From the NCBI RefSeq assembly GCF_017873175.1, contig NZ_JAGGJW010000005.1, forward strand, positions 1-64,000: a stretch of 64,000 nt of DNA, given 5' to 3'. Under the pieces are notes generated by a model. The model had not been told where the DNA came from. It saw only the letters and a list, made by a program, of their open reading frames with translations, and made no database searches. Positions 8,266 through 30,683 of this stretch are shown here, piece after piece. Source of the DNA: Neorhizobium petrolearium (GTDB lineage Bacteria > Pseudomonadota > Alphaproteobacteria > Rhizobiales > Rhizobiaceae). Numbering within the stretch: the first letter of the stretch is position 1; each line of letters opens with the position of its first letter. The translations under genes and the position numbers were made by a program.

Positions 8266-8281
8266 GGAACTTAATGGTTCC
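8266..8281. promoter_or_regulatory. Candidate TetR operator upstream of the MFS gene
   Basis: GGAAC-TTAATG-GTTCC, a palindrome in the 71-bp gap between tetR and the MFS gene. Its minus-strand half GGAACC is shared with the palindrome upstream of tetR (8914-8929). Shared half-sites suggest one regulator for both; the match is partial. Confidence 0.5.
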
Positions 8282-8290
8282 TAATTGAAG

Positions 8291-13000: not shown

Positions 13001-13345
13001 CTCGATCGGGATGCTTGTGGCATCGGCGGCGGCGGGTTTGATCCAGACGCCCGGGGTCGGGTCTCTTCGGAATTCCGCAAGGCTCGAGGCCGCCGGATGG
13101 CGAAGTATCTCGTCGGCGGGCAGATCCACATCGGTTTTGCGAGAGATGACCGCAACCTCGCGTCGCCCATCGGGGCTGCGAAGAAACAATCCCCGAACCC
13201 GTTTTTCGGTAAACTCGTTCGCTGAAGCGATCAGCTTGCTGCAGGGATGGCCGAGTTTCCTGACGGAGGCACCATGGATTTTACCAGCGATCGCGAATTG
13301 GGGCGGAAGCGAGATTTCGAGATCTTCTTTGAAAAGCGTATCCAC
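10046..13345 (-). CDS. SF2 helicase fused to a C-terminal nuclease-like domain (probable defence protein)
   Basis: Large protein of 1099 residues. Superfamily 2 helicase motifs lie in the first half: Walker A IVMPTGTGKTETMLAL near residue 175, motif Ia VVVPSDALRTQM, DEAH box LFVDEAHHIAAKMW near residue 280, motif III QFTATPYRTD, and the second RecA domain with VCVDMLGEGFDLPELKIAAL and QFVGRFTRMR (motifs V and VI). A long middle region is unassigned. The C-terminal 250 residues contain an Asp-rich start (DVVFDDDGSGESADVVAI) and VAMFHCKYSSDL, which resembles a PD-(D/E)xK nuclease core with an altered second half. I chose GTG at 13345 because GGAGG precedes it; an upstream TTG at 13360 has none. 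Its place beside other defence genes suggests anti-phage activity. Confidence 0.8.
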   Translation of the reverse strand: MDTLFKEDLEISLPPQFAIAGKIHGASVRKLGHPCSKLIASANEFTEKRVRGLFLRSPDGRREVAVISRKTDVDLPADEILRHPAASSLAEFRRDPTPGVWIKPAAADATSIPIEKLEAGCAEIRESWRGAFTFAEERLVGDIVVQPGLRKPQIGAIHAALGHWTASSAPATIVMPTGTGKTETMLALMVVAEVERLLVVVPSDALRTQMSEKFLSLGVLKDSGCLAPDAKLPVVATLDEIPKSVEEVDGIFRRANVVVTTMDAVAKANGEVQLRMAELISHLFVDEAHHIAAKMWREFRGQFASRTVLQFTATPYRTDGRRVDGKFIYNYPLAKAYAEGYFKKIHFKPIYGLDRDDADLRIIQAVKAALVQDEAEGHVHLAMARCRIIDAAIKLHRLYCQLLPEYNPVIVYSSLSSKAKLEALRKLRSGESRIVVCVDMLGEGFDLPELKIAALHDKHQSEAITVQFVGRFTRMRKDLGDATVIANVVAAGMRDSLQALYNEDADWNHLLEGLGTRNTAREERRQEVFEGFDQPPTDFPLDQVTPRLGAVVYETTCERWDPNRIVDAYGPGSIIEGPSINYAERLAVWVLKTEEKLKWTSMRQPVNSAYHLYACHWDDERQLLYVSSSNLSDLHARLAEKVAGADAKRIRGDDVFRVLDGYKRLILSHLGLSEAVRKPIRYSQFMGSDIAPQLTDDPANRGRMKTNIFGQGYTASGKSTIGCSTKGKIWSYESVHGFAGWMEWCKVIGAKLQDSSIQPDGILRRLVQPTKLTSMPDKHAVAINWPEAVLHVDDDRVDLVFGDVSVPFYDCDIRILSQIPGTEIVMRVGGDDRFVDVAMTIDGSGAHYRPTAVSGVRIGKKTTDLVTWFKDDPPHIYFADGNMLLASELLKLPDDHAPPFDPDRLVARDWSGVNIKKESQGRNKDATSIQRRVIDELLQSGGFDVVFDDDGSGESADVVAIKKEGDVITVAMFHCKYSSDLTPSARVDDLYEVCGQTQKAIRWRERPDLLFARLRKRETAIQKKFGLSRLEKGSVIDLIQWHNRWSEFDYRFEMTAVQPGYSKSEAIRQQDKGQLEILAATQSLLMDTWAIPFTFQCSP

Positions 13346-13619
13346 GTCGCCTCCAGGCAAAAGAAATGCGGACCCTTTACTGTACCCTCAATGGTAGTGC
13401 AGCTCCTCAGCCGCTGCAACGCCGGGAAAGTGAGGCGAACTATTGCAAGCCGCCTGTTCCACAAGAGAGTTCGAACGGAACGATTGCATTACTCACCCCG
13501 AGCCCTGTGCACAAGGCTGCTACCATCGGGCGAGGCTAGTTTGCTTGCACGACCAAAATACGTATCATGCGTGCCACGCGAGCAATCAGTGGATTCCGCG
13601 ACAATGACATGGAAATCAT

Positions 13620-15251
13620 ATGACGGTCTCGCCTTCGGACACTCCGACAGAACAGTTCAAGCTCTTTTTCTCTTCGCAGACGCCCTCCGACGCCCGATCG
13701 ATCGAAAATAATACTATTCTGATCACCCCGTCTGGAGACAGTTTCGACGATTTCCGCTTTAAGACGCGGATCAATGTTTTCGTTCGCCGGGACTCTGCTC
13801 GCCTGACAGCCGAATTTTCTGGCATGATCGGCTTTCTCCAAAACTCGAATGACGAGGTGAATGGCGCTGATCTCATCAAGAGTGCGGCTCCAGACAAGTC
13901 GGTTGTCCCCGGGGACGACTTTCCGAAATTCTTCACGCTACTGCCCGACCTCGATGCCTATCGCGGGCTCGTTGCCGATGCTGACGTCACTGGTGCTCGC
14001 GAAATTCTGCTAAAAACCTGCGATCTCGTCGCGTTGGGTGAGTTTTCCGCAAACTCTCCGATTGTGCGCGACGCGCCGAACACTGCGGTTTTCCAGTATT
14101 CCTTAACGCGTACCGCGGAAGCTTTTTTTGCCTACAAGAACGCAGGACCGATCCTGCGAGGTCTCGGCCATGAGGAAATCGGTCGGATGTCGCCGACGAT
14201 CGCCGTGTCGTTCAAACTCACGGCTTTTGAAAACGAGCACGAGCTCAGATTCAACTTCGACCATACCGGCTTCTTGCCAAAGCGGATGGCGATCATCATC
14301 GGGAAAAATGGTGTTGGGAAAAGTCAAGCGCTCAGCACTATCGCGAAGCGGGCCATAAAAGGCGGCGGCCTGATTGATCCACAAACGGGGGAGCGGGCTC
14401 AGTTCAACCGGATGCTGGCGTTTGCCCCAACGAAAGAGGCGCTCTCTATCTTTCCGGGCACGGCGCGACGCCGGCAATATGTTCGCTATTCACGTTATGC
14501 CCTGACGCGATCCACCCCGACTCGAAAAGCCGGCGGTCTGATCAGCGCGATCGTCAGCGTCGCCCGGTCGAACCAGGCGATCAAGGATCGCAGCCGATGG
14601 CAGATTTTCCTCAATGCACTCGAAGCGCTGGGTGACCCGAAGTCCATCTGGGTCTGGACAAACGACGGCATTATTCCATTAAGCTCTTTGAACCAGGGCG
14701 GTGAACAGGAAAAACTCAGACGTTTTGCGTCGCTTAACACCCGGCGCGATCCGGTTCGTTTCTCCGATGGCAACGCGCTTCGCCTGAGTAGCGGCGAAAT
14801 CTCCTTTCTCAAGTTTGCGGCCTATGTGAGCTTGGAAATCGACAATAGCTCTCTTCTACTCTTCGACGAGCCCGAGACCCATCTGCACCCGAACTTTATA
14901 GCGCGCTTCGTTTCAATCCTGGACAGCCTGCTGGCGCAGACCGGGTCCGCAGCCATCATCGCGACGCACTCTGCCTATTTTCTCCGAGAGGTTTTCAGGG
15001 AGCAGATCTCGATCCTCAGGGCTGATGCCGACAGACGCATTGAAGTCCAGAGACCTCGCCTTGCAACGTTCGGTGCAGACGTCGGAGAAATTTCCTACTT
15101 CGTTTTTGGAGAAGACGAACCTTCATATCTCGCGCGGGAGCTGGAGAGAAACATCCAGTCATCGGGGATGACCTGGGATGAGGTCCTCGAAAACTACGGC
15201 AATGAGTTGTCGCTGGAATTCCTGAACGAACTTCGGGCAAAGATCGGCTGA
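13620..15251 (+). CDS. Septu-like ATPase (PtuA-like)
   Basis: ABC/SMC-type AAA ATPase of 543 residues, not membrane-bound. The first 210 residues are unassigned. Walker A is MAIIIGKNGVGKSQALSTI near residue 230, the signature-like segment is LRLSSGEISFLKFAAYVSLE near residue 385, Walker B is SLLLFDEPETHLHPNF near residue 420, and the switch His is in AIIATHSAYFLREV. The layout matches PtuA of Septu and related retron-linked ATPases. Its stop codon overlaps the start of the HNH nuclease gene (TGATG), so the two are translationally coupled. PtuA-type ATPases hold and control their HNH partner until a phage trigger. No strong ribosome binding site precedes the ATG at 13620. Confidence 0.8.
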   Translation: MTVSPSDTPTEQFKLFFSSQTPSDARSIENNTILITPSGDSFDDFRFKTRINVFVRRDSARLTAEFSGMIGFLQNSNDEVNGADLIKSAAPDKSVVPGDDFPKFFTLLPDLDAYRGLVADADVTGAREILLKTCDLVALGEFSANSPIVRDAPNTAVFQYSLTRTAEAFFAYKNAGPILRGLGHEEIGRMSPTIAVSFKLTAFENEHELRFNFDHTGFLPKRMAIIIGKNGVGKSQALSTIAKRAIKGGGLIDPQTGERAQFNRMLAFAPTKEALSIFPGTARRRQYVRYSRYALTRSTPTRKAGGLISAIVSVARSNQAIKDRSRWQIFLNALEALGDPKSIWVWTNDGIIPLSSLNQGGEQEKLRRFASLNTRRDPVRFSDGNALRLSSGEISFLKFAAYVSLEIDNSSLLLFDEPETHLHPNFIARFVSILDSLLAQTGSAAIIATHSAYFLREVFREQISILRADADRRIEVQRPRLATFGADVGEISYFVFGEDEPSYLARELERNIQSSGMTWDEVLENYGNELSLEFLNELRAKIG

Positions 15252-19029: not shown

Positions 19030-19803
19030 ATGATGATGCTATCCCAGATCCCTTCGTCCCAGAATGCTGAACAGAAGGTGCAGTCCCTATGTGCGGCTGA
19101 CTTTGTCTGCTGGTCGCGAATGCAGGCTGAGGCGGGACAGGAACTCAATTCCATTCTTGCTCGCAAAGAGAATGAAAGACGTGCAGGCGACGGCCTCTTT
19201 TTTTGGGGGGTTGGCAATGCACCATCGACGTCGATTGGCGCCCTTGCCCGGATGAAGAAGGACGTTCCAGTCGTGTTCTCAATCATGAAGAGCAGGCCGA
19301 AGGTGGCGGACTCATCCCCCAGTAGCCTTCTGGTGTGGCGGCGCTTTGTTGATCTGTATGGGGTGGAACGACCATTGCCGCCTCATGCCCTTATCACAAG
19401 TCGCGGCGATAGCGACAGCGGCACCCGCAAGACCAAGCACTACGCACTTATGTGTTGGTCGCAGGACGAGTTGCAAATCAAGCGTGGCATACCGTTCGAT
19501 CATAACGCCTACCGAAATGCGGGACCGAATGGTGCTCCGGTCGGCGCTTCTCAGGTAACGGCTTTACTGACGCAGGCTACGAAGCCTTCTGGCGAAGCCC
19601 AATACGAAGCCAATTTGGAAGCAACCCTTGCAGGCAGCTATTGGATTCGCCTTGTCGATCCTGTGAGATTGACAAAAAAAAGGGCTGCCATCTATGCCGA
19701 CACCTCCTGCAACACAAGTTCGGAATGGCTCGATATGGTTAGGGAACTTCGGGCTGGCGTCGGTGTCGAAGGTCAGCCCGACTTCCAACCTTCGCTGTTT
19801 TAG
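19030..19803 (+). CDS. Hypothetical protein, first gene of an ImmA/PIN module
   Basis: Protein of 257 residues without a family I can name. Conserved-looking features are VCWSRMQAEAGQELNSILAR and GDGLFFWGVGNAPSTSIGAL in the first third, a KTKHYALMCWSQDEL segment in the middle, and a C-terminus ending PDFQPSLF. No signal peptide or transmembrane segment is seen. The gene is followed after 69 bp by an ImmA/IrrE-type peptidase and then an overlapping PIN-domain gene on the same strand, so the three probably form one operon. It starts at the first of three consecutive ATG/ATG codons; a GGAA stretch precedes it. It could be the sensor or substrate of the module, which is a guess. Confidence 0.6.
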   Translation: MMMLSQIPSSQNAEQKVQSLCAADFVCWSRMQAEAGQELNSILARKENERRAGDGLFFWGVGNAPSTSIGALARMKKDVPVVFSIMKSRPKVADSSPSSLLVWRRFVDLYGVERPLPPHALITSRGDSDSGTRKTKHYALMCWSQDELQIKRGIPFDHNAYRNAGPNGAPVGASQVTALLTQATKPSGEAQYEANLEATLAGSYWIRLVDPVRLTKKRAAIYADTSCNTSSEWLDMVRELRAGVGVEGQPDFQPSLF

Positions 19804-19872: not shown

Positions 19873-20868
19873 GTGGATCCAGATACCAAAAATTTATTGA
19901 ATGAGTTGCGCAAGGCCGGCCTTGGTGATCGCGCAATTCGAGCAGCGTGGCCAGCTTGGTGGTCCGATGACATGGCGGCTAGCCCGTCAAGTCGCGCAGA
20001 ACTTAGATTTGCACTCGCAAGGAAGCTGGGACTAAGCCCAAAACCTCTGCTGGGAGAACGCGTCGAGTTCATCTGGAAAGATAAAGCTCGATTCAAGCAC
20101 CTTTCCGTTCACGACTTCAATCAGCAAGACGCGATGACCTCGTTTGGCGTCTCAGTAGGACGCCTGTTACTTCATGCAACGATGGCGACGCACCCGATAA
20201 ACTCGATATCGGCGACTTCGCTTCGCCAGGCGGTGCTTTCAAACGCCAATTATGTCGATCTGCAAACCTTGCTGGCCACGTGCTGGGCGATTGGCATCCC
20301 AGTGATCCACCTCCGCGTGTTTCCGCTCGACACAAAGTCGATGCATGCGATGGTGGTCGAGGATCGTGGCCGGCATGCAATTTTGCTCGGGAGAGATGCA
20401 AATTATCCAGCACCAGTCGCGTTCACTTTGGCTCACGAGCTTGGCCACATAATGCTCGGCCATCTGGAAGGCGCTTCAGCAATCGTTGACTTGGAAGAGT
20501 CCACAGAATTCGAAGATGGGGATCCGCAGGAACAGGAAGCCGACGAATACGCTTTGACGCTCCTGACATCAACACCGTCCCCAGACATTCGGACTAATAT
20601 CTCTCAATTTGGGGCTAGGGCTCTTGCGAAGGCGGTGCTGGAAGCGGCCCCACGATATGGAATTGAGCCAGGAACGCTGGCTTTATGTCTAGCTTATCGC
20701 GAAAAGATGTGGCCAACAGCAATTGCTTCACTGCGACACATTTACACTGAGTCGAAGCCGGTTTGGAACGAAGTGAATTCAATCGCAAATCAGCAACTGG
20801 ACTGGGGGCAGCTTAACGAGGAATCCGCCGAGTATCTTCACAATATAATGTTGGGAAGCGATGACTGA
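19873..20868 (+). CDS. ImmA/IrrE-family zinc metallopeptidase
   Basis: Protein of 331 residues. The metallopeptidase domain contains AFTLAHELGHIMLGHLEG near residue 190 (HExxH zinc site with catalytic Glu) and the third-ligand segment DPQEQEADEYALTLL about 35 residues later, as in ImmA of ICEBs1 and IrrE/PprI. Those enzymes cleave a partner repressor or antitoxin. The N-terminal half is unassigned and lacks a recognisable XRE DNA-binding domain. Translation starts at GTG 19873. Its 3' end overlaps the next gene (PIN domain) by 8 bases (ATGACTGA), which indicates translational coupling and suggests a peptidase-controlled toxin-antitoxin or defence module. Confidence 0.8.
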   Translation: MDPDTKNLLNELRKAGLGDRAIRAAWPAWWSDDMAASPSSRAELRFALARKLGLSPKPLLGERVEFIWKDKARFKHLSVHDFNQQDAMTSFGVSVGRLLLHATMATHPINSISATSLRQAVLSNANYVDLQTLLATCWAIGIPVIHLRVFPLDTKSMHAMVVEDRGRHAILLGRDANYPAPVAFTLAHELGHIMLGHLEGASAIVDLEESTEFEDGDPQEQEADEYALTLLTSTPSPDIRTNISQFGARALAKAVLEAAPRYGIEPGTLALCLAYREKMWPTAIASLRHIYTESKPVWNEVNSIANQQLDWGQLNEESAEYLHNIMLGSDD

Positions 20869-21523
20869 AGGTGTACTCGTTGACAACGATGTTGTCGTAA
20901 AGATCTGCGCCTACCGATGTGGGCAGGAGTTCCTAGAAATCGCGACCATCAGCGATCGTTCACCGGGCATACTGGCTGTCGCTCGCCACTCAATTTCCAG
21001 CCGCCTCGGACGCTCGAAGGTCCTTGCCGACCAACAGGGAGCGAAAACAGAATGGGATGGACTCGTATCACGGCTGACAATAATCGAGCCTTCTTCTGAG
21101 GAAGTCGATCTCGCTGCGGATTTTGAAACTCGCGCAATCGAACTGTCACTGCAATTGGACACCGGCGAGAGTCAACTCTTTGCTGTACTCATCCTGCGAT
21201 CGGCGCCGTTGTTGCTGACCGGCGACAAGCGAGCTATCCAAGCGTTGGAAGAAATCGCACCTTCAAGCTCTCATGGGACAGTTGGTTGCTTGGAGCAGCT
21301 CTTGCTGGCTTTCCTCAATGTCTTTGACAACGCCACCATACGAGGCCGGATTTGCGCTGAGCCATCAGCTGATCGTGCGGCTGCGATTTGCTTTTCATGC
21401 TCAAGCCCATCTGTTCCAGCTGCAACCATAGTGGCTGGCCTAAAAAGCTACATCGCGAACCTTCGGGCTGTGACCCCTAGGCTGCTTGTCGCGGCCGACG
21501 ATATCTCAGCGATAGTTCCGTAG
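20861..21523 (+). CDS. PIN-domain-like protein
   Basis: Protein of 220 residues with the pattern of a PIN nuclease domain: VLVDNDVVVKICAY at the N-terminus (first acidic residues), LSLQLDTGESQLFAVLIL in the middle (Asp and Glu), and LLTGDKRAIQALEE (third Asp) before residue 130. The C-terminal 90 residues are unassigned. PIN domains are Mg-dependent RNases. It overlaps the ImmA/IrrE gene by 8 bases, so the two are coupled. Its last 18 bases overlap the end of the convergent gene at 21506. The combination suggests a toxin (PIN) whose activity is gated by the peptidase, which is inference. Confidence 0.65.
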   Translation: MTEGVLVDNDVVVKICAYRCGQEFLEIATISDRSPGILAVARHSISSRLGRSKVLADQQGAKTEWDGLVSRLTIIEPSSEEVDLAADFETRAIELSLQLDTGESQLFAVLILRSAPLLLTGDKRAIQALEEIAPSSSHGTVGCLEQLLLAFLNVFDNATIRGRICAEPSADRAAAICFSCSSPSVPAATIVAGLKSYIANLRAVTPRLLVAADDISAIVP

Positions 21524-22093
21524 AAAAACAGCGTATGGGGCTTTCAACTCGGCTACGAGATTAATAGGGCGCTCTTTAGGCTGCTCCATCGCTTCATTGC
21601 TGCGCTCTGGCCCATCAAGAACCTCCAAGCAAGCCTTGTCGACGCGGCCATTTATGTATCGACTGCCCAGCCGACCAGCGCTTGGCCCCACGGGAACTCG
21701 TGTCATATCGAGCGGCAAGTCGAATACATCTTCCCTCAGGTCTGCGATAACCAGCGCATAACGCGAGCCACGGACTTCAATTGTATCTGGAATGGTCTGC
21801 CAGGTCACACCATCAGCTGAGTATTCCGCTGCGCAAAGCGGCTCTGCGAAGTGATTTGACGTCATCGCTTCCATGCACAAGTGAATTGGTTCGCCCGCCT
21901 CTGCGAATCGACGCGCAAAAGGCTGGACCATGGAAGTCGGGTGACAGGTGTTGCCACCGTAGCCCCACATCCCATAACCCGTCTGCTTAATCTCCTCCGA
22001 TTTCCTCTTGATGATGTCTTCGAGAGTCTCCTGGGCGTGTGTGCCGACCTTCATGAAAAGTATGCCCGCACCTGGATGAATTATGTTGCTCAC
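21506..22093 (-). CDS. Conserved protein of unknown function, third gene of kinase/BpsA-like operon
   Basis: Protein of 195 residues. It has strongly conserved-looking motifs, HPGAGILFMKVGTHAQE at the start and GYGMWGYGGNTCHPTSMVQP near residue 40, plus SADGVTWQTIP and VRGSRYALVIADL later. I recall similar proteins in many bacteria but not a function. Its GTG start overlaps the stop of the BpsA-like gene (GTGA), so the two are coupled. The Gly-rich GGNTCHP stretch could be a catalytic or ligand loop. Its 3' end overlaps the convergent PIN gene by 18 bases. No membrane segments are seen. Confidence 0.65.
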   Translation of the reverse strand: MSNIIHPGAGILFMKVGTHAQETLEDIIKRKSEEIKQTGYGMWGYGGNTCHPTSMVQPFARRFAEAGEPIHLCMEAMTSNHFAEPLCAAEYSADGVTWQTIPDTIEVRGSRYALVIADLREDVFDLPLDMTRVPVGPSAGRLGSRYINGRVDKACLEVLDGPERSNEAMEQPKERPINLVAELKAPYAVFLRNYR

Positions 22094-22968
22094 TTCCCGT
22101 CCTCCAACATCACCAGCTCATATTCGTCGTCTGGAGCCATACCGTAGTCAGGCCGTTTTCGTTCCTTGACATACTTTACCTTAGGATCCTTTGAATTGCC
22201 GTAGAAGTTCGTCAACCGTTCCTGACTTGCCGCAATGCTCGGGCTGCGCTTAGCGCTATTGCCTGGAAGGGCGCTGACAAAAAGGTTGCAGGAACGAAGG
22301 TCTGGCGCGTCATCGAGATGATACTCATGCAGTTTCCTCTGCATGCGGGAGACGTAAAAGCCACGCTGGGATCCGAACGCCTGGACGTTCGCCAACACCC
22401 TCTTTGGCCAAGCCAGTTCATCGTCGTCGGCAATAACCACCATGCCGTCACCCTCGTAGTGCACCGCGTCGAATCCTCGCTCCATGAAAACGTTCACACT
22501 TTCCCCATTGTTGGATGCACCCCAAGGCGGGTTCGTATAAAAGCAGTCGTATTTGTTGCGATCAGGGAACGCGTCTAGGCAGTTATATAGCTCGGCATCC
22601 AGATGTTCGAGCCGCTCCTTATCAGCGAAACGCTTGACAGCATTGACGGTACGCTCGTCAAAATCAAATACAGTGATCTTCGAAGGGCCGAAACTGAGAA
22701 CCTCGCGAGCCCTGAGATATGCGACGCAAACGCTGACCGCATCACCGTCGCCGATGAAAGCCAGACGTTTGCCGTCTGCCCAATCGGCGACAATCTCACT
22801 TTGAATCACCATATCGGCCGTCTTCATATGGATCTGGTCGAACACTCTTAACGGTCTGGGACGATTTTGCACGACGTCCGACACAGCATTGATGGCTTTA
22901 TGCAAGTCCACTTGTTCGCGCATCAAACATCGCACTCCAGCTTCGACTAATATGAATGTTCCCGGCAT
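22090..22968 (-). CDS. BpsA-like (branched polyamine synthase family) transferase
   Basis: Protein of 292 residues resembling the catalytic part of BpsA, the N4-bis(aminopropyl)spermidine synthase of thermophiles (a Rossmann transferase that uses decarboxylated SAM). Visible signs are VFDQIHMKTADMVIQSEIV, then LAFIGDGDAVSVCVAYL (cofactor loop), ITVFDFDERTVNAVKRF (acidic ribose ligand), and DCFYTNPPWGASNNGESV, an NPPW motif as in amino-methyltransferases. The N-terminal winged helix of archaeal BpsA is missing. ATG 22968 is preferred; a TTG start at 23001 would overlap the kinase gene. The substrate could be a polyamine or a nucleotide/base amine. It is sandwiched between a kinase gene and the unknown gene at 21506. 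Confidence 0.6.
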   Translation of the reverse strand: MPGTFILVEAGVRCLMREQVDLHKAINAVSDVVQNRPRPLRVFDQIHMKTADMVIQSEIVADWADGKRLAFIGDGDAVSVCVAYLRAREVLSFGPSKITVFDFDERTVNAVKRFADKERLEHLDAELYNCLDAFPDRNKYDCFYTNPPWGASNNGESVNVFMERGFDAVHYEGDGMVVIADDDELAWPKRVLANVQAFGSQRGFYVSRMQRKLHEYHLDDAPDLRSCNLFVSALPGNSAKRSPSIAASQERLTNFYGNSKDPKVKYVKERKRPDYGMAPDDEYELVMLEDGK

Positions 22969-22981
22969 TTTAGCGTGTAGG

Positions 22982-23563
22982 TCAGGCCAGGCGTCGGGCA
23001 AGCCGCGTCACCAACGCCGTTTGCTCGATGTTCGTATCAAACAAATAGACAGGCTTGCCCGTGATCGCGCCGTAAGTTGCTGCCAACGATGCCTGCAGAG
23101 TGGTGTGAAATCTTGCTTGCTCAATATCAACCATCGGTCTGCCGCTGGCATCATCTCCGATGCGCTGTATGGCTACTTCTGGCGATGTGTAGAAAACCCA
23201 GATCTCATCAGGGTTCAGCTTGCCGACCTGCTCAAGCGAAAATGCCGTGATGCGATAGCCGTAGTCCTCTTTTGTCACTGGATGGCTATCAATCAGAACG
23301 TGACTGCTGGCGCGATGTGTTTCGATGAACTGCAACAACAGTTCATCAACTGCCGTGACATCTTCGGGAAGAACAATATTAGCGGATTTTCGCCGAAGAT
23401 CACTTTGGTCACTAAGAACAGCGCCGCGGTCACGGACAAACGTTGTGAGCCGCGCACCGTATTCCCATAGCACAAGAGGTATGACAGCTTCCGCCAGCAG
23501 GCGCGCTGTGGAACTTTTTCCGGCCGCAGGCGCACCAGTGAGATAGATCGTCTTGAAGGACAT
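22982..23563 (-). CDS. P-loop nucleoside/nucleotide kinase-like protein
   Basis: Protein of 193 residues of the adenylate-kinase/AAA_33-like P-loop kinase group. The Walker A motif is IYLTGAPAAGKSSTARLLAE near residues 4-23. The middle VLIDSHPVTKEDYGY resembles the substrate/walker B strand, and IGDDASGRPMVDIEQARFHT is a lid-like Arg region. It may phosphorylate a small nucleotide-like molecule. The ATG at 23563 is preferred to a TTG at 23596. It is the first gene of a three-gene operon with the BpsA-like gene (13 bp later) and the unknown gene. Its function in the operon is not known. Confidence 0.68.
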   Translation of the reverse strand: MSFKTIYLTGAPAAGKSSTARLLAEAVIPLVLWEYGARLTTFVRDRGAVLSDQSDLRRKSANIVLPEDVTAVDELLLQFIETHRASSHVLIDSHPVTKEDYGYRITAFSLEQVGKLNPDEIWVFYTSPEVAIQRIGDDASGRPMVDIEQARFHTTLQASLAATYGAITGKPVYLFDTNIEQTALVTRLARRLA

Positions 23564-23845: not shown

Positions 23846-25837
23846 TTATAACAAGGCAGCTATCCGCGCTCTTTCTACAAGATCGACGATCTTCCAACCT
23901 TCTTTTTCAGCCTTTTCGGCGACCGCCTCAAACTCTGACTTTCTCAAAGCGAGGCCCAGGAGTTCACGCGGCCGCGTCACGGCAACGAAGACATTGGTGG
24001 CCGCTGCCACCCCTATTTCAGACAGGGGCGTTGCCCCTTCGATCCCAAACGCTCTCGACAAGACAGTCGAAAGGTCCAGGCATGACTGGTCTTTTGCGTG
24101 CCCCTTCCAAACCTCGCTCTCCAAGACCAAAATCCCGTCGACCGTCTTCCCCTTGACTGAATGGATAGAACCGAGGCGGATGGTTGCTTCCCCGATCGTG
24201 ACCTGCTTCGTCGCTCGCGCTGCCGGCCCGACCGCTTCTGCCTCTTTACCCCGAACGAAGCCACAATACTCCGTCACCCCCGCCGAAACAGCCTGCCCGT
24301 CGGCTGGATCAAACAGCGCAAGCAACGCTGCACAAAATGTCTCCCAGGCGACCTTCTCCCAAGCAGCTTTGCCAGTTAATATGTGCCTGTGGAGGAGCGA
24401 CCTGATTTTTCGAGGCAGTTCAGCCTCGCGACGACCGAGAGTCACCCAAAGGTTTCTTGCCGTAATCGGTCCACCGTTTGAGCCGGTCCAATCGTAAAGC
24501 CGCAAAAGCTCGGCGATAGCGCTACAGAACAGATCCATGACTTCGGACGGTGGACGAGCAGCCGCGTGATGGAGCGCAGCTTTTTGAAGCTGCCTGCAAA
24601 GGAGATTTGCCTCTTTCGGCGTACCGGCTTCACCGCGATATGTGGAATGGTAATCGACAAGGCTCTTCGGGTACCAGGCTCCCTTGACCTTCCCCGTGAC
24701 GTTGTGCCGTGACGCTACGGCCCAGATCTCCTGCCGCGAAAAGGAATCGGGCCAATGCGCCTTGGCCTCCTCAGCGAAGGCGGTAAGCACGCCGGCAATC
24801 GTCTTCTCATCAAACACGATGACGACCATCGAGGTTCGCTTGCCGCCAACGCTTTGTATTTTTTGGGGAAGCTTGGTGGTCAGCCGGCTCGCGAAGTCGG
24901 CTATTGGCTGACCGAACCGGCGGCTCTCGTTGAACGGAATGCAATCCGCGCCGGGCGTCCAGTATGACGCTACGGTCGCATCATCCTCGTAGAGGGTCTG
25001 ATTGCTGTCGCCGAGACGTTGGAACGCTGCGCCGCCGCCGCCGAATAGGAGCTCCAAAAGCTTCATCTGCTCGCCGTTCGTGTCTTGTGCTTCATCCAGG
25101 ATCACAACAGGAAAGCGGGAGCGCAGGCGTTCTGCAATTTCCGGATTATCTTTGAGGGCACGCAACGCGAGTACAGTCATATCTGAATAACGATAGAGCC
25201 CCTTCTTTACCATGAGCGCCTTCAGCCGAGCGAGCGCCTTGCCGCAGGACGTATCAGCACCGTGCTGCCGTTTTCGGCGACGTACCGCGAGAGTTTCGGG
25301 CAGTTCCGAACCGGTCACGAAATCTACGTCAAGATCCAAGCCTCGGACCCATGATTCCACCATTGCAGGCGCTTTTTTGGCCTGTGCTTTCAATTCCCAA
25401 TAGTGGGGTAGCGCTCGTGCCGCTTCCGCGGCGAAGACATCATCATCGATGCGCCGGATCGGCCAGCCAAGGCCGTGCAAGTAAGGCAATGCCAGGAATT
25501 GGTTGACGAACGCCGTCACCGTTCCGGTGAAATGGGGATAGGCCATAAGTCGCGAAGCCGTCGGGTGGCGCGAAATCTGCTGCTCAACTTCCGTGCGCGC
25601 CGAATTTGTGTGCGAAATAACGCATACGCCTTGGCGGCGGCTGTCCCAGCTTCGCGAGAGAAGAGCGAGCTTGGCTGCCAGTAGAGTGGTTTTCCCGTTT
25701 CCGGGTGCAGCCTGCACGTCGCAGGAAATCATGCTTCCGAGAAAGTCTGAACGGCTCTTGTCCGAAAAGTCACAGCCGCCGAGCTCGGCGCCAAGCTCGG
25801 CCAGGAGTTGGGGCGTGATCGGCGCGATTTCGAGCAT
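23846..25837 (-). CDS. gajB: UvrD/Rep-type helicase (GajB-like)
   Basis: Superfamily 1A helicase of 663 residues. Walker A DVQAAPGNGKTTLLAAKLAL lies near residue 45, motif Ia CVISHTNSARTEV near 75, motif II VVILDEAQDTNGEQ near 245, motif V-like GSIHSVKGKTVDGILVLE near 570, and VAVTRPRELLGLAL near 630. The gene starts 2 bp after the GajA-like gene ends, the arrangement of Gabija (GajA nuclease plus GajB helicase). GajB is thought to sense DNA ends or nucleotide depletion and act with GajA. It is longer than the roughly 500-residue B. cereus GajB; the extra length is in the middle (residues 390-540). The symbol reflects family resemblance, not proven function. Confidence 0.8.
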   Translation of the reverse strand: MLEIAPITPQLLAELGAELGGCDFSDKSRSDFLGSMISCDVQAAPGNGKTTLLAAKLALLSRSWDSRRQGVCVISHTNSARTEVEQQISRHPTASRLMAYPHFTGTVTAFVNQFLALPYLHGLGWPIRRIDDDVFAAEAARALPHYWELKAQAKKAPAMVESWVRGLDLDVDFVTGSELPETLAVRRRKRQHGADTSCGKALARLKALMVKKGLYRYSDMTVLALRALKDNPEIAERLRSRFPVVILDEAQDTNGEQMKLLELLFGGGGAAFQRLGDSNQTLYEDDATVASYWTPGADCIPFNESRRFGQPIADFASRLTTKLPQKIQSVGGKRTSMVVIVFDEKTIAGVLTAFAEEAKAHWPDSFSRQEIWAVASRHNVTGKVKGAWYPKSLVDYHSTYRGEAGTPKEANLLCRQLQKAALHHAAARPPSEVMDLFCSAIAELLRLYDWTGSNGGPITARNLWVTLGRREAELPRKIRSLLHRHILTGKAAWEKVAWETFCAALLALFDPADGQAVSAGVTEYCGFVRGKEAEAVGPAARATKQVTIGEATIRLGSIHSVKGKTVDGILVLESEVWKGHAKDQSCLDLSTVLSRAFGIEGATPLSEIGVAAATNVFVAVTRPRELLGLALRKSEFEAVAEKAEKEGWKIVDLVERARIAALL

Positions 25838-25839
25838 GA

Positions 25840-27870
25840 CTACCGCGCCCCTTCCACTGGAGCCGGTTCGGCCACGTCATCCTCCTCGACGTCATTTCCG
25901 AAGGGAGGCTTTCCTGCCTCATAAGGTTGAGTCACAAAATCGATAGCGCGAACAAGATACGGAGGCAGACGATCGCGCATGTCAGCAGGTGTATCCGGCC
26001 GCGCCCGGAGGATGGCCGCCAATTCTTCAGCTACTTCAGCTTTTGACGCATTGCTGTTGAAGACTGGATCGTAGATCTTCACTGCAATTTCCAGGTTGGT
26101 GAGACCGTCGTGTTTCCACTGCTGATATTCCTTGTTCGCGGCCTCAATGATCTTCTCTCGCCGTTCGGGCTTCCGCGTGGAAGATTTCGCGAGCTGGACC
26201 GCCTGATGGACGCTTTCAGCCAGAAGTGGCTGCAAAGCCAAATCAAACTCAAGGGTCCAGCAGTCAGCAATGAAGGCGTCGACCGGATCGCCGACGTCAC
26301 GGCGAAGCGTTTTCATGCGCGCTTCGATAACCTCTGCGTCCAGCTCATCTTCCGTCATTCGTTTGCCAACCAATGCTTTGGCTTCCTTGGGCGGGATATC
26401 CCGATCCGGGATCAAAGCGACCGGAATACCCACTGCCGGCCCGACCTTGCGCTGGAGAATGCGACTGTACCGAAAGAGCCCCCTATGCCCGACATTGACG
26501 ATTGAAACGCCGTACCGGCTAAGTGGTCGCCCCAGCTTTTCCGCAAGCGCTGGCAGAAGAAGGTTCTCGCCATCGCCTTCGACAACTATCAGGGCCCGGG
26601 CGAAAAAGAGATTGGCTTTGGTTGCGTCGAGGAACCGCCGAAGAAACTCGTAGTCGCCGATATCGAGGCGGGTATATGTGGCGGCCAGAGGGAATGCTTG
26701 ATGCCCGACCATCATGGTCATGGTCTCGAGGTCTGCGCCAGCTGCCAGCTGCGGACTATGGGTCGTCAACAAGACCTGCACCTGCTTCTGGGCGTCGCCG
26801 GACCCAGCCGCCGCGCGCGCAGCAAGCACCTCCATGAAGAGTGTCTGATGCTGTGGGTGGAGATGCGCCTCGGGCTCCTCGATCAACAGGAACGGGACTT
26901 GATCCGGGTGGGATTGCAGCAACAGCAACTCAGCCGCCATAAAGAGGAGATTGTTGTAGCCAAGCCCTCGCTGAACTCGACCTTCGCCCGATTTGGCATT
27001 TAGATAGAGTTCAAAACGCTCAAGCACCTGATCGAATGAACCATGCGCGCCGAGATCAAGGGTGGCGACCAGCGGATCATCGGAAAAAGATAGCTTGTCG
27101 AGGAAGGCGGTGTTGACGTTGCTCGCGATGCCGCGGACGGCGGTATTGTCGCTGACATCCTTGTCGGCAGCTTTGAGCGTATCAAGCAATGTCGCGTTTC
27201 CCCCAATAACACCCGGTTTGCTTTCTGGCCCCATTTCCGGCATGGCGCCAAGGATGCGGGAAAGACGGGACCGGCGACCCGCCCTGAGTTCGCGCTCAGC
27301 ATCTCGAAGGGGCTTCAGGTATGTCGCTTTGAGGTATTCACGCAGCTCTCCGTCGACCGGTAGGCCTTCGCCATCCTTCCCAGCTCGATGCTGGGTCGCG
27401 ATAATGCTGCCTCCGCCCGGTGAAAGGCGACGCACGCTTCGGATACAGATGTGGAGACGGAGGGTCCCCTTCTCGTTTGTGCACCATTCAAGAAACCGGG
27501 ATTCCTCGTCCGCTGTCAGTGCGTCGAACGTGCAGGTGATTGTGAACTCTGAGGTACGCGCCCCTGTGGGATCGACGTGAAAATCCAACTCATCAGGTCG
27601 CAGATAGTCGTCTCCGCGCGTCCATAGAGTATACCGGACGGCATCGATGATCGCGCTTTTCCCAGCGTCGTTCGGACCGACAAGGATGTTGAGGCCAGGG
27701 GTCAGTTTGAGTTGCAACGGCGAGCCGGGTTCGAAGCATCGAAAACCCTGCGCAAAGATTTCTGAGATGAACACTGAATGCCCCCCACGACTCACATCCA
27801 GTATTACTTCCTCGTTTGCATCGCGCTGAAAAGGGACAGCTTCCGATTGAACATGAAAAATTGCGTTCAC
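25840..27870 (-). CDS. gajA: OLD-family ATPase/TOPRIM nuclease (GajA-like)
   Basis: OLD-family protein of 676 residues. N-terminal ATPase: NILVGPNDAGKSAIIDAVRY (Walker A, near residue 65), FLLIEEPEAHLHPQHQ (Walker B, near 350), LLTTHSPQLAAG (switch His). C-terminal TOPRIM nuclease: ALIVVEGDGENLLLPALAEK (catalytic Glu) and VALIPDRDIPPKEA (DxD). GajA of Gabija has this layout and cuts DNA when nucleotides fall. Followed after 2 bp by a UvrD-type helicase gene, so this is a Gabija-like (class 2 OLD) pair. It is longer than B. cereus GajA (578 residues), with about 30 extra N-terminal residues and a longer C-terminus. It follows the papain-like gene at 27885 with a 14-bp gap. Confidence 0.82.
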   Translation of the reverse strand: MNAIFHVQSEAVPFQRDANEEVILDVSRGGHSVFISEIFAQGFRCFEPGSPLQLKLTPGLNILVGPNDAGKSAIIDAVRYTLWTRGDDYLRPDELDFHVDPTGARTSEFTITCTFDALTADEESRFLEWCTNEKGTLRLHICIRSVRRLSPGGGSIIATQHRAGKDGEGLPVDGELREYLKATYLKPLRDAERELRAGRRSRLSRILGAMPEMGPESKPGVIGGNATLLDTLKAADKDVSDNTAVRGIASNVNTAFLDKLSFSDDPLVATLDLGAHGSFDQVLERFELYLNAKSGEGRVQRGLGYNNLLFMAAELLLLQSHPDQVPFLLIEEPEAHLHPQHQTLFMEVLAARAAAGSGDAQKQVQVLLTTHSPQLAAGADLETMTMMVGHQAFPLAATYTRLDIGDYEFLRRFLDATKANLFFARALIVVEGDGENLLLPALAEKLGRPLSRYGVSIVNVGHRGLFRYSRILQRKVGPAVGIPVALIPDRDIPPKEAKALVGKRMTEDELDAEVIEARMKTLRRDVGDPVDAFIADCWTLEFDLALQPLLAESVHQAVQLAKSSTRKPERREKIIEAANKEYQQWKHDGLTNLEIAVKIYDPVFNSNASKAEVAEELAAILRARPDTPADMRDRLPPYLVRAIDFVTQPYEAGKPPFGNDVEEDDVAEPAPVEGAR

Positions 27871-28585: not shown

Positions 28586-29524
28586 TCAGGCGCGGACAAT
28601 ACCTTCCCGCTCGAGGACTTGGCGGATTTCCTCCGATTTGTCTCGCAGTCGGCCGGCTTCGAATCGAATTTGCCCTAAGCCGACGATGTTCGAAAACTCC
28701 TCGCACCCGTGTTCCAAAAGAATAATCGCCTTACGGAACCCGAGCCTTCCCTGAAACAGCCCAACTTCGTGGATGACATTCATCCGAGCCTGCTTCTGCC
28801 CCTCTGCGCTTTCGTCCTCTGCCGTCATCACCAAGAAAGCAAAGGCCGCGTTTTCGAGCATTTCCTCTAATCTGTTTGAGGTCGCAATACCCGCAGCCGA
28901 CTCGCGGTTGAATTCATCGTATGCGAGGCCCAGTCTATCGCCCAAGAAATCCTTGAGGTCTCGCCAGTCTGCAGAGCGCCCGTGGCCGATGAAAATCTTT
29001 TTTCCTTTGTTCATATCGGGTCTCCGTTCGCTGCGTGTTTTGTCCAATTCGTGCCAACCATGAGGAGTTAGCGCGTAATGGTCCTCTGGTTCATATGTGA
29101 TGAGGCCTTGCCTCGTCGCCTCGTTCAAAAGCACGTCAACTGCGTCACCGTCCACAACGCCGACTATGCCAGCCAAAAACTCCGGCTCAGTCACCTCGAC
29201 CGCCTCGAAATGATCGTCTCCAGCCAACTCCTCGAAGTACGAGATGAGATTGATGAGCTGTTTGGCGACTGGCGGCAGTTTCTCCGCAATCAGCGAATCA
29301 AGGTCCCGACTCTGAAGCTCGAACCATGAGTCCGAGCTAGTTCGTCGACGGATCGCATGGCTCAGCCGTGCGGGGGCTGTCTTTTGCGCCGCGAGCCGCG
29401 ACGTCAACATGGCCAGGGACGAACCGGTTGCAACGAACGGGCCGCAACGCGGACAATTGAACTGGCGGCCGTCATCTCCACGACCTTCATCACAGCTATT
29501 CTTGCAGACCGGACATCTTCCCAT
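28586..29524 (-). CDS. Zinc-ribbon protein with C-terminal CAP12-type TIR domain
   Basis: Protein of 312 residues. The N-terminus has a zinc-ribbon pattern (RCPVCKNSC, then NCPRCGPF). A middle region resembles a winged-helix (VDVLLNEATRQGLITYEPED, then YALTPHGWHEL). The C-terminal 135 residues, from KKIFIGHGRSADWRDLKDFL onward, form a TIR-like domain of the CAP12 type (predicted nucleotide-binding). Typical elements are the FxGHGRS start, EEMLENAAFAFLVMTAEDE, ARMNVIHEVGLFQGRLGF, and LGQIRF near the end. CAP12 TIR domains are NAD-cleaving effectors in CBASS and other abortive systems. The same domain occurs in the upstream gene (29556). The ATG at 29524 is preferred to a TTG at 29536. Cell suicide by NAD loss is the inferred output. 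Confidence 0.72.
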   Translation of the reverse strand: MGRCPVCKNSCDEGRGDDGRQFNCPRCGPFVATGSSLAMLTSRLAAQKTAPARLSHAIRRRTSSDSWFELQSRDLDSLIAEKLPPVAKQLINLISYFEELAGDDHFEAVEVTEPEFLAGIVGVVDGDAVDVLLNEATRQGLITYEPEDHYALTPHGWHELDKTRSERRPDMNKGKKIFIGHGRSADWRDLKDFLGDRLGLAYDEFNRESAAGIATSNRLEEMLENAAFAFLVMTAEDESAEGQKQARMNVIHEVGLFQGRLGFRKAIILLEHGCEEFSNIVGLGQIRFEAGRLRDKSEEIRQVLEREGIVRA

Positions 29525-29555
29525 GTTAAACCCCAAAAACGCTATGTTCGTGCCG

Positions 29556-30683
29556 CTACGATGACGCTAACCGTCCAACCAGACCCTCGCGTTCAAGGAC
29601 CATTCTGATCTCTTCGAAGGCCGCAACGATATTGTCCTTTGGGAAGCGGATCTGCCCCAGCCCCTGTATGTTCGAGAATTCCTCACAACCATCTTCGAGT
29701 AAGACTATCGCTCGCATGAAGCCAAGCCGTCCCTGAAACAGCCCCACCTCGTGGACCACGTTCATACGTGCGTTCAACCTGCCATCGCGCTGCTCATCCT
29801 CTGCGGTCAGGACTAAGAATGCAAACGCGGCAGCCTCAAGCATCTCGTTCAGGCGCGTGATGTTGCTCATACCTGCTACGGGGACGCGATTGAATTCGTC
29901 CGAAGGCAAATGCAGGCGGTCTTCAATGAAATCCTTGAGCTCACGCCACGATGATGAGCGACCGTGCCCAATGAAGACGTTTGTCCCGACTAGAGATGAG
30001 ACCCGGGTCTTCCGTTCAGCCCGGACAAGGTGTGAGCCGATTTGCCGCACGATCTCGGCAAGTTGCTTGCCACACTCTGCAGGCTGATTAAGCGCGGTAG
30101 TTTCTGCAATTATAAGCTGGTGGGGAGCGGCTCGCGCGCCACCGTTCAAGGCACGCGTGTCCTGCGTCATAAACTGGCCCCCTCCTAGGAAGGCGCGAGA
30201 GAGCTGCTGGGCACTGGCTATCTGGACGCCGTGCACTTGCTTAAGCAAGGAGCTCAGGAATGCGTCCTTCCGGCCTTCCAATAAGATGTTCATCCCCGAC
30301 AACACCTCCCCCTTCGCTCGATTGAACTCCCTTAGCGACTCCCCAGATGCGCTTTCGCAATCCGCCATCTCTGGATTGCCGGCGAGCCGATAGACTGCCG
30401 TCTTCACCTGGGCAGCACTAAACTCTCCCCAGTCTCCCAAAGTATCCGACAGCCAGTCCTCGCCGATCCCATGCATGACGCTGAACTGGGCACCTGCCGG
30501 CGGCTTTCGAAAGCCGTCGTAATAAACATTCGCTTGATAGCCCAAGTTCGATCCGCTCCACGCCTCATGGATCGCTACAGCGGCATCCAAAACCCTCTTG
30601 AGTTTTGCCTTGAAACGTCGCTCGAAATTACTGGATGATTCCTCCAGTTTGTCGGCGATTTGCAGAAAATCTCGACCGTCCAT
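29556..30683 (-). CDS. Large protein with C-terminal CAP12-type TIR domain
   Basis: Protein of 375 residues, first gene of the five-gene minus-strand cluster. The N-terminal 230 residues are an unassigned, mixed domain with no zinc motif (for example ANVYYDGFRKPPAGAQFSVM). The C-terminal 140 residues are a CAP12-type TIR domain nearly parallel to the one in the next gene: NVFIGHGRSSSWRELKDFIE, NEMLEAAAFAFLVLTAEDE, ARMNVVHEVGLFQGRLGF, CEEFSNIQGLGQIRFP. Two paralogous TIR effectors behind different N-termini suggest two recognition modes for one output. The next gene begins 31 bp downstream. As an NADase the protein would be toxic when active. Which signal turns it on is unknown; no cyclase is in the operon. 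Confidence 0.7.
   Translation of the reverse strand: MDGRDFLQIADKLEESSSNFERRFKAKLKRVLDAAVAIHEAWSGSNLGYQANVYYDGFRKPPAGAQFSVMHGIGEDWLSDTLGDWGEFSAAQVKTAVYRLAGNPEMADCESASGESLREFNRAKGEVLSGMNILLEGRKDAFLSSLLKQVHGVQIASAQQLSRAFLGGGQFMTQDTRALNGGARAAPHQLIIAETTALNQPAECGKQLAEIVRQIGSHLVRAERKTRVSSLVGTNVFIGHGRSSSWRELKDFIEDRLHLPSDEFNRVPVAGMSNITRLNEMLEAAAFAFLVLTAEDEQRDGRLNARMNVVHEVGLFQGRLGFMRAIVLLEDGCEEFSNIQGLGQIRFPKDNIVAAFEEIRMVLEREGLVGRLASS

What the first reader, a model, noticed from the sequence alone, without database searches (positions are those of the whole stretch)
21506..23563. Kinase / BpsA-like transferase / unknown operon without a described counterpart
Seen: three minus-strand genes, a P-loop kinase-like protein, a BpsA-like protein with an FYTNPPW motif and no N-terminal winged helix, and a conserved protein with GGNTCHP; a GTGA overlap and a 13-bp gap couple them. 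Known: BpsA makes branched polyamines; NPPW/NPPY motifs also occur in enzymes acting on amino groups of bases. Inferred: the set may make or add a modified polyamine or nucleotide, in a defence island. I cannot match it to a named system.
Basis: partly seen in the sequence, partly recalled or inferred. Interest (0 to 1): 0.75.

Follow-up and report, generated by a model that had tools for sequence, protein, structure and literature searches.

The report
Methyltransferase-linked RNase toxin gene cassette
The three genes are one arm of an apparently undescribed, patchily distributed six-gene cassette that pairs a methyltransferase-like enzyme and two proteins faintly resembling readers of methylated adenine with a toxin-like RNA-cutting enzyme, so it may be a new kind of modification-controlled toxin or anti-phage system.

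Summary
The three minus-strand genes are real but are only half of the unit. In 72 of 72 loci with enough downstream sequence (window included), the BpsA-like gene (bps) and the GGNTCHP gene (ggn) sit with a PIN-type RNase gene (pin), an ImmA/IrrE-type metalloprotease gene (imm) and a second unnamed gene (ffw). The kinase is accessory (38 of 72). ggn and pin usually converge, often with overlapping ends. ggn and ffw are remote homologues; no Pfam family was found for them, and both confident AlphaFold models have YTH (N6-methyladenine reader) domains as best but weak VIA-align matches. The BpsA-like enzyme lacks an aspartate that BpsA needs and carries NPPW-G-x-x-N like the rRNA m6A methyltransferase METTL5, so polyamine synthesis is unlikely. 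The kinase resembles archaeal adenylate kinase. The cassette is rare, patchy, spans several phyla, occurs on plasmids, and here abuts Gabija. Best reading: a modification-linked PIN toxin/defence cassette (writer, readers, RNase, protease switch), analogous to predicted PIN-GNAT-EVE/ASCH/AAA_17 systems and built on a COG2856-PIN core. No activity is shown; reader fold and chemistry are inferred. Adenine signalling is the bold reading.

The parts
22982..23563 (-). kin: P-loop kinase like archaeal adenylate kinase (accessory component)
   Evidence: Pfam AAA_17 1e-13; family profile matches archaeal adenylate kinases along most of its length, best E 1.5e-15; present in 38 of 72 loci
22090..22923 (-). 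bps: BpsA-fold enzyme with NPPW, proposed SAM-dependent base N-methyltransferase (writer); 22968 is a less likely start
   Evidence: PF01861 2.8e-17; GDGD, NPP and the following G in 52 of 52 aligned sequences; start by comparison with relatives
21506..22093 (-). ggn: GGNTCHP protein, no known family, proposed YTH/EVE-like reader
   Evidence: no family match (60 members); AlphaFold model pLDDT 93.8; YTH domains are the best structural matches, Z up to 3.8; homologous to ffw
20861..21523 (+). pin: PIN-type RNase, proposed toxin/effector
   Evidence: D8, D10, E103, D122 in 47 of 47, D100 in 43 of 47; 1 of 47 members matches Pfam PIN, E 9e-4; in 72 of 72 loci
19873..20868 (+). imm: ImmA/IrrE-type (Peptidase_M78) metalloprotease, proposed switch
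   Evidence: PF06114 7.1e-7; HE.GH in 68 of 83 profile hits, HE..H in 14 of the other 15; in 72 of 72 loci
19030..19803 (+). ffw: FFWGVGN protein, no known family, second proposed YTH/EVE-like reader
   Evidence: no family match; AlphaFold model pLDDT 91.9; the 50 listed VIA-align entries are YTH domains, Z up to 3.2; in 72 of 72 loci
21506..21523 (.). tail-to-tail overlap (18 bp) of the ggn and pin coding regions
   Evidence: coordinates; convergent in 80 of 81 loci, ORFs overlapping in 52 of 80 and ends within 50 nt in 71 of 80; not convergent in L005 and L152

Best explanation
A mobile, modification-linked toxin/defence cassette of two arms, usually convergent.

Arm 1 ([kin]-bps-ggn): the BpsA-fold enzyme uses SAM to mark an exocyclic amino group of a base, most likely adenine in RNA (writer), and ggn recognises that mark or a related one (reader).

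Arm 2 (ffw-imm-pin): PIN is the RNase toxin/effector, imm is the metalloprotease that switches the system by cleaving a repressor or antitoxin, and ffw is a second reader that targets or restrains the RNase or its regulator.

When the mark is lost, or foreign or unmarked nucleic acid appears, PIN is released and cuts RNA. The adenylate-kinase-like protein is optional and probably handles the modified nucleotide.

Shown here: composition, linkage, conserved catalytic motifs, ggn/ffw homology, patchy distribution and plasmid carriage. Inferred: reader fold, adenine as substrate, RNA as target, order of events, anti-phage role.
For: bps, ggn, pin, imm and ffw occur together in 72 of 72 loci with at least 4.5 kb downstream (58 groups at 85% bps identity), by record titles in Pseudomonadota, Actinomycetota, Acidobacteriota and Cyanobacteria. 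Their pairwise distances correlate (r 0.62-0.90; 0 of 999 permutations reach r; 77 loci, 76 with ffw, 37 with kin). ggn and ffw are homologous (hhalign E 2.6e-12; negative controls at most 1.2% probability). Two confident models (pLDDT 93.8 and 91.9) each return only YTH domains among the 50 listed VIA-align entries. The tryptophan of strand 2, which in the YTH sequences sits in GVWS/NIWC (its cage role is recalled), is invariant: 57 of 57 in ggn, 56 of 56 in ffw. bps has N-P-P-W-G-x-x-N and a local match to METTL5 (E 3e-4, NPPFGTKN) and lacks BpsA's Asp159. PIN acidic residues and imm HEXXH are conserved. Precedents: COG2856-PIN three-component toxin-antitoxin systems (PMC2701414, passages) and predicted (PIN)-GNAT-EVE + ASCH + AAA_17 systems (PMC7641849, passages and two sections). 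Patchy distribution and plasmid carriage.
Against: The YTH resemblance is weak: VIA-align Z at most 3.8 and 3.2, no Foldseek match at E <= 0.001, and for ffw the top Foldseek rows are unrelated folds. No Pfam YTH or EVE match; profile comparison with 27 EVE and two YTH sequences gave nothing (at most 0.4% probability), though the same test also failed on YTH versus EVE. Only one of the two cage tryptophans has a clear invariant counterpart. bps is overall closer to BpsA (E 7e-16) than to METTL5 (3e-4), keeps the Asp160 equivalent, and has an acidic C-terminus like the aminopropyl-carrying tail of BpsA. Pfam recognises PIN in only 1 of 47 members. A compact relative (L142) has bps, ffw and kin without pin, imm or ggn, so the RNase is not always part; ffw relatives also stand without bps, pin, imm or kin in five loci. 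The linkage count starts from bps hits and covers the closer relatives only (80 of 109 kept). The neighbour scan did not show defence enrichment over a control, and Gabija was not found beside the relatives.
Confidence: 0.42

Rival explanations
1. Small-molecule version: bps and the adenylate-kinase-like protein act on a free adenine nucleotide (for example methyl-AMP to di- or triphosphate), and ggn/ffw bind that nucleotide as a signal that controls PIN. The system is then nucleotide signalling, not RNA marking.
For: The kinase profile matches archaeal adenylate kinases along most of its length; the compact variant L142 keeps bps, ffw and kin and drops pin, imm and ggn; kin distances correlate best with ffw (r 0.82, 37 loci).
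Against: kin is missing from 34 of 72 loci, and no ORF of 121-329 aa with an N-terminal P-loop was found within 7 kb of bps in the 47 loci without kin, some of them short contigs; YTH domains are known as nucleic-acid readers, not nucleotide sensors (recalled).
Confidence: 0.2
2. Addiction module: a COG2856-PIN toxin-antitoxin system (imm cleaves an XRE-type repressor/antitoxin, PIN is the toxin) that stabilises plasmids and islands; bps, ggn and ffw form its antitoxin. Phage defence is not its role.
For: imm and pin both present in 72 of 72 loci, neighbours in the map; COG2856-Xre-PIN systems predicted in PMC2701414 (passages); a separate HTH-like gene beside imm in 13 loci; found on rhizobial, Agrobacterium and Pseudomonas plasmids; 7 integrase and 6 resolvase matches among 104 flanking genes, against 2 and none listed in the control.
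Against: Six genes is large for an addiction module; this copy abuts Gabija and the Rhizobium plasmid copy lies within 12 kb of AbiE genes.
Confidence: 0.22
3. One reading: the operon makes a modified polyamine or adds it to a nucleic acid.
For: Homology of bps to BpsA (5xnc, E 7e-16); conserved Asp160 equivalent; acidic C-terminus (consensus).
Against: The Asp159 equivalent is Gly in 52 of 52 and the DPP site is NPPW; linkage to an RNase and a protease; the N-terminal part of BpsA is absent.
Confidence: 0.08
4. Cargo artefact: independent genes carried together by mobile elements.
Against: 72 of 72 linkage across phyla with correlated divergence; gene order changes while content stays.
Confidence: 0.03

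Closest known systems
(PIN)-GNAT-EVE + ASCH + AAA_17 putative toxin-antitoxin systems (Bell, Wolf and Koonin 2020, PMC7641849; passages and sections 10 and 19 read)
   Same: PIN RNase, a base-modifying enzyme, two PUA-like base readers, AAA_17 kinase, HTH in some; patchy and defence-linked
   Different: No GNAT, EVE or ASCH found among the window proteins scanned; the enzyme is a BpsA-fold transferase, the two proposed readers are a homologous pair without a family, and an ImmA protease and a mostly convergent layout are added
COG2856 (ImmA/IrrE)-Xre-PIN three-component toxin-antitoxin systems (Makarova 2009, PMC2701414; passages read)
   Same: Zn-protease next to PIN toxin, with an HTH-like gene in some loci
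   Different: Combined here with a methyltransferase-like enzyme and two further proteins
BpsA, N4-bis(aminopropyl)spermidine synthase (PF01861)
   Same: Homologous catalytic domain; GDxD and DxDER elements
   Different: No N-terminal domain, Asp159 to Gly, DPP to NPPWG-x-x-N
METTL5 and related N6-adenine RNA methyltransferases
   Same: NPP[F/W]G-x-x-N motif; local profile match E 3e-4
   Different: Overall sequence nearer BpsA; no activity known
YTH domain (and the YTH domain of an archaeal McrB homologue, as told in PMC7641849)
   Same: strand-helix-strand-helix-strand order with an invariant tryptophan in strand 2; best VIA-align matches
   Different: Weak scores, no sequence-level match, second cage tryptophan not identified
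Gabija (GajA/GajB)
   Same: Immediate neighbour in this window
   Different: A separate system; sequence searches with this GajA/GajB pair hit only the window's own DNA among the loci

Membership tests
BpsA (EC 2.5.1.128) | PF01861 catalytic-domain homology | tested here: met
   E 2.8e-17; PDB BpsA 5xnc E 7e-16
BpsA (EC 2.5.1.128) | GDDD motif with Asp159 and Asp160 (PMC12979288, passages) | tested here: not met
   GDGD: Asp159 equivalent is Gly in 52 of 52 aligned sequences, Asp160 equivalent kept; GDGD in 88 of 89 hits, the other being a partial ORF
BpsA (EC 2.5.1.128) | C-terminal acidic cluster that carries the aminopropyl group | tested here: inconclusive
   An acidic C-terminal stretch exists (consensus xDxEYxLELLE) but aligns with no BpsA tail
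BpsA (EC 2.5.1.128) | N-terminal domain before the catalytic domain | tested here: not met
   The alignment starts at residue 126-144 of the solved chains and at position 10-20 of this family
N6-adenine methyltransferase type (METTL5-like) | [DNS]PP[YFW] catalytic motif (recalled signature) | tested here: met
   NPP[WYF] in 89 of 89 bps sequences; aligned with NPPFGTKN of METTL5, E 3e-4
N6-adenine methyltransferase type (METTL5-like) | SAM-dependent methyl transfer to adenine N6 | not testable with these tools
   needs biochemistry
YTH domain | YTH fold | tested here: inconclusive
   The 50 listed VIA entries are YTH domains for both models, but Z only up to 3.8 and 3.2
YTH domain | Pfam YTH sequence match | tested here: not met
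   None of 60 ggn members at E 0.1; the window ffw has no Pfam match at E 1; two further ffw members none at 0.1; other ffw members not scanned
YTH domain | two conserved cage tryptophans (recalled) | tested here: inconclusive
   The strand-2 tryptophan is invariant (57 of 57, 56 of 56); no clear counterpart of the second
EVE domain | profile similarity to EVE | tested here: inconclusive
   hhalign at most 0.4% against 27 EVE sequences, but YTH versus EVE also failed
PIN RNase | conserved acidic active-site residues | tested here: met
   D8, D10, E103, D122 in 47 of 47, D100 in 43 of 47; Pfam PIN in 1 of 47
ImmA/IrrE (COG2856, Peptidase_M78) | HEXXH zinc site | tested here: met
   HE.GH in 68 of 83 profile hits and HE..H in 14 of the other 15 (a few hits lie outside the cassettes); PF06114 7.1e-7 in the window protein
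COG2856-Xre-PIN toxin-antitoxin | Zn-protease and PIN genes together | tested here: met
   72 of 72 loci
COG2856-Xre-PIN toxin-antitoxin | XRE-family HTH partner or fusion | tested here: inconclusive
   A recurrent separate gene in 13 loci; the two examples scanned match HTH models only weakly; a fused HTH in the other loci was not tested
(PIN)-GNAT-EVE/ASCH/AAA_17 | GNAT-EVE fusion protein | tested here: not met
   No GNAT or EVE match among the 10 window proteins scanned, which include the whole cassette
(PIN)-GNAT-EVE/ASCH/AAA_17 | AAA_17 kinase | tested here: met
   PF13207 1e-13; accessory, 38 of 72 loci

The most novel reading that the evidence does not exclude
A bacterial adenine writer-reader-effector cassette: three independent hints point at adenine (METTL5-like NPPW-G-x-x-N in a BpsA-fold enzyme, YTH-like folds in two homologous proteins without a family, an archaeal-adenylate-kinase-like partner). 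A methylated adenine mark on RNA, or a methylated adenine nucleotide, would then be written, read and used to gate a PIN RNase. This would be a categorically new, modification-gated RNase immune system in bacteria with its own m6A-type readers.
Probability: 0.17. Interest if true: 0.9.

Novelty: new variant of a known kind. Interest (0 to 1): 0.7.

Why it matters
If true, bacteria carry a self-contained set of base writer, readers and RNase whose readers resemble the eukaryotic m6A-reading YTH fold, which is described as rare in prokaryotes, mostly archaeal and linked to restriction of modified DNA (PMC7641849, passages). It would add two protein families without a name and a repurposed BpsA-fold enzyme to the modification-linked toxin/defence systems. 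It would also test whether the predicted (PIN)-GNAT-EVE/ASCH/AAA_17 systems and this one follow one scheme in which the modifying enzyme can be exchanged. The 72 of 72 linkage gives experimenters a defined five-gene unit. A practical point: in 4 of the 5 plasmid records the gene is annotated 'bis-aminopropyl spermidine synthase family protein', which is probably misleading.

Tried and rejected
Three-gene unit: rejected, since the kinase is in 38 of 72 loci and pin, imm and ffw in 72 of 72. Polyamine synthase: disfavoured (Asp159 lost). Zeta-toxin kinase: only weak Pfam (E 0.19) and PDB (E 0.012) matches; archaeal adenylate kinase is far better. Phage origin: no tblastn match to bps, ggn, imm or pin, nor to an ffw relative, in 50,697 phage records; two IMG/VR contigs carry bps and ggn; imm and pin each match a PHROGs family of unknown function (2.3e-50 and 6.6e-10), so imm and pin may also exist without bps in proviruses, not followed further. 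Gabija as a constant partner: the window GajA and GajB hit only the window and L001, a copy of it; the annotated AAA ATPase and helicase upstream of the Agrobacterium copy gave no phmmer match to them.

Sequence proof of a YTH or EVE relationship: failed, but the test has no power because YTH versus EVE also failed. A first EVE comparison used wrong-strand sequence for 13 of its 27 EVE loci and was replaced. YTH profile in 58 genomes of the class: nothing over the cut-off. ASCH: found in 5 of 41 genomes, not compared further. BFVD fold search with ggn: nothing at E <= 0.001. Profile PDB searches with ggn, ffw and pin: nothing meaningful. Scan of viral contigs with the L142 bps: nothing.

Defence enrichment of neighbours: 106 flanking genes were chosen from 53 loci and 104 scanned; I left out two (one from L045, one from L054) without a recorded reason. 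They matched 34 PADLOC families at 1e-15 (25 shown), nearly all one gene each. The control, 104 genes from 18 of 20 evenly spaced stretches of two contigs of the window's own genome, matched 18 families, the commonest being mad3 with 7 genes. One genome, including the window's contig: inconclusive. Recombinases: 7 integrase and 6 resolvase matches versus 2 integrase and no listed resolvase (first 25 families shown in each), same caveat.

Counts and rows dropped: of 109 relatives in the genome scan only the best 80 were kept, so 72 of 72 concerns the closer ones. 86 loci with bps were considered, including the window, 4 plasmid loci and 1 viral contig; 14 with less than 4.5 kb downstream were left out, among them both Chloroflexota loci. 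The 72 are not all independent: 66, 58 and 20 groups at 95, 85 and 70% bps identity. Further from bps the linkage loosens: L142 lacks ggn, pin and imm; L151, L156, L157, L158 and L159 hold an ffw relative and no bps, pin, imm or kin by profile search.


Full report
Observation. The three minus-strand genes exist where stated: kinase 22982-23563, BpsA-like 22090-22968 or 22923, GGNTCHP protein 21506-22093. I call them kin, bps and ggn. The GTGA overlap of bps and ggn is real. The 13-bp gap between kin and bps depends on starting bps at 22968; the four plasmid relatives are annotated as starting at, or two residues after, the equivalent of 22923, giving 58 bp. Pfam gives AAA_17 for kin and PF01861 (BpsA_C) for bps; ggn has no match in Pfam, PADLOC, NCBIfam or PHROGs.

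What the unit is. Relatives were fetched from plasmids, from one genome for each of 84,980 prokaryote species (109 relatives, best 80 kept) and from viral contigs. In a profile survey of 86 loci with bps, 72 had at least 4.5 kb downstream, and all 72, the window included, carry bps, ggn, a PIN-like gene (pin), an ImmA/IrrE-type metalloprotease (imm) and a second unnamed gene (ffw); kin is in 38 of 72. The 72 form 66, 58 and 20 groups at 95, 85 and 70% bps identity. Distance matrices of all pairs of the proteins correlate (r 0.62-0.90, 0 of 999 permutations reach r), as expected for a co-inherited unit.

Distribution. In samples of whole genomes ggn was found in 2 of 299 (phylum), ffw in 4 of 398 (phylum, E <= 0.01), and bps in 3 of 297 (order), 3 of 385 (class, one marginal) and 4 of 398 (phylum, one marginal); these tallies include the window's own genome. 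Record titles span Alpha-, Beta- and Gammaproteobacteria, Actinomycetota, Acidobacteriota, Cyanobacteria and Chloroflexota; the two Chloroflexota loci were too short for the linkage count. Rare, patchy and sometimes plasmid-borne: an accessory, mobile system. In this window it abuts Gabija, and the Rhizobium plasmid copy lies within 12 kb of AbiE genes. Among 104 flanking genes there were 7 integrase and 6 resolvase matches against 2 and none listed in a 104-gene control; defence-gene enrichment over that control was not shown.

The enzyme. The bps profile matches solved BpsA (5xnc, E 7e-16) and, over positions 87-156, METTL5 (E 3e-4). BpsA needs Asp159 and Asp160 of GDDD (PMC12979288, passages). 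Here the motif is GDGD in 52 of 52 aligned sequences, so the Asp159 position is Gly; the DPP of BpsA is NPP(W/Y)G, with an invariant Asn three residues after the Gly. That is the METTL5-like arrangement (NPPFGTKN). The N-terminal part of BpsA is missing. An acidic C-terminal stretch resembles the aminopropyl-carrying tail of BpsA and speaks against a clean switch. My reading: a SAM-dependent transferase acting on a base amino group is more likely than a polyamine synthase (inference).

The two unnamed proteins. ggn and ffw are homologous (hhalign E 2.6e-12; 97.7% with controls at most 1.2%; an ffw profile also picks up the ggn gene of the window's genome weakly, E 0.009). AlphaFold models are confident (ggn pLDDT 93.8; ffw 91.9). 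In VIA-align the 50 listed entries for each model are YTH domains (two titles do not say so; one search lists those entries under YTHDC1), with best Z 3.8 (6fpx_C, 98 residues, 3.9 A) for ggn and 3.2 (5dnp_B, 101 residues, 3.7 A) for ffw. Foldseek ranks 1-17 for ggn are YTH domains, but none has E <= 0.001, and for ffw the top rows are unrelated. The order strand-helix-strand-helix-strand in both models fits the EVE topology given in PMC7641849. Tryptophan 43 (ggn, 57 of 57) and 59 (ffw, 56 of 56) lie in strand 2, where the YTH sequences have GVWS/NIWC; that this is a cage residue is recalled. Sequence-profile comparison with EVE and YTH gave nothing, but could not connect YTH with EVE either. 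I put the YTH/EVE-like assignment at about 60%.

The other parts. pin keeps D8, D10, E103 and D122 in 47 of 47 and D100 in 43 of 47; Pfam sees PIN in 1 of 47. imm has HE.GH in 68 of 83 hits and HE..H in 14 of the other 15. imm and pin each match a PHROGs family of unknown function, though no phage record matched them by tblastn. A separate recurrent gene lies beside imm in 13 loci; the two examples scanned match HTH models weakly. kin matches archaeal adenylate kinases along most of its length (best E 1.5e-15).

Variants. L142 is a compact set, bps (NPPY) and ffw facing kin, without ggn, pin and imm. Mesorhizobium (L013) and Sphingopyxis (L031) carry an extra bps-ggn pair without extra pin or imm, suggesting that bps-ggn is a functional pair. 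ffw relatives also occur without the rest, for example directly upstream of tcmP in the annotation of a Rhizobium phaseoli plasmid and beside an HTH-like gene in Methylomonas (judged from its sequence only).

Mechanism. Best reading (0.42): writer (bps), readers (ggn, ffw), RNase effector (pin), protease switch (imm), optional nucleotide kinase (kin). Parts and linkage are shown; substrate, target, reader role and switch are inferred. Rivals: nucleotide signalling (0.20), addiction module (0.22), polyamine metabolism (0.08), unrelated cargo (0.03).

Comparison with the known. COG2856-Xre-PIN three-component toxin-antitoxin systems were predicted in PMC2701414 (passages); the imm-pin half resembles that kind. 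PMC7641849 (passages; sections 10 and 19 read) predicts (PIN)-GNAT-EVE operons with ASCH and AAA_17 partners; the present set looks built on the same principle but has no GNAT or EVE match. I found no description of this combination in the open-access library with the searches (listings seen; only the three papers named in this report were opened); most subscription papers and bioRxiv are not held. Novelty: new variant of a known kind; the adenine-signalling reading would be categorically new.

Noticed in passing
window 23846-27870 (-): Gabija pair: GajA 25840-27870 (PADLOC E 1e-186) and GajB 23846-25837 (4e-125), immediately upstream of the kinase.
   Followed up: partly
window 28586-29536 and 29556-30683 (-): Two adjacent genes that both match the CBASS Cap12 TIR NADase models well below their cut-offs; the first also matches the Pfam CAP12 TIR domain. 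Possibly a duplicated TIR effector next to Gabija.
   Followed up: no
window 10046-13360 (-) and 13620-15251 (+): A large helicase-like protein matching a DNA-phosphorothioation restriction model and RadD, and beside it a restriction-associated AAA ATPase, all below the models' cut-offs.
   Followed up: no
window 19873-21523 (+): imm and pin match PHROGs families phrog_18577 (2.3e-50) and phrog_15597 (6.6e-10), both of unknown function, hinting at imm-pin pairs in proviruses.
   Followed up: partly
L142 7971-9958 (G577:C26): Compact variant of the cassette: bps (NPPY) and ffw overlapping by 11 bp, convergent with kin, without pin, imm and ggn.
   Followed up: partly
L156 7971-10912 (Rhizobium phaseoli pRphaN671a): An ffw relative in another setting: directly upstream of tcmP (TIGR04474) and near a gene related to radical SAM mobile pair protein A, beside a restriction-modification system.
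   Followed up: partly
L013 7787-9261, L031 6512-7932: Extra bps-ggn pairs beside a complete cassette, without extra pin or imm.
   Followed up: no
L057 8529-9344 (-): A distant solitary bps homologue with NPPYGSKNGG next to a cassette; it also matches Pfam UPF0020, an RlmKL-like methyltransferase domain.
   Followed up: no
L158 and L159 about 8001-8564 (Burkholderia replicons): ffw-like genes without any other cassette gene by profile search, in records with almost no annotation.
   Followed up: partly
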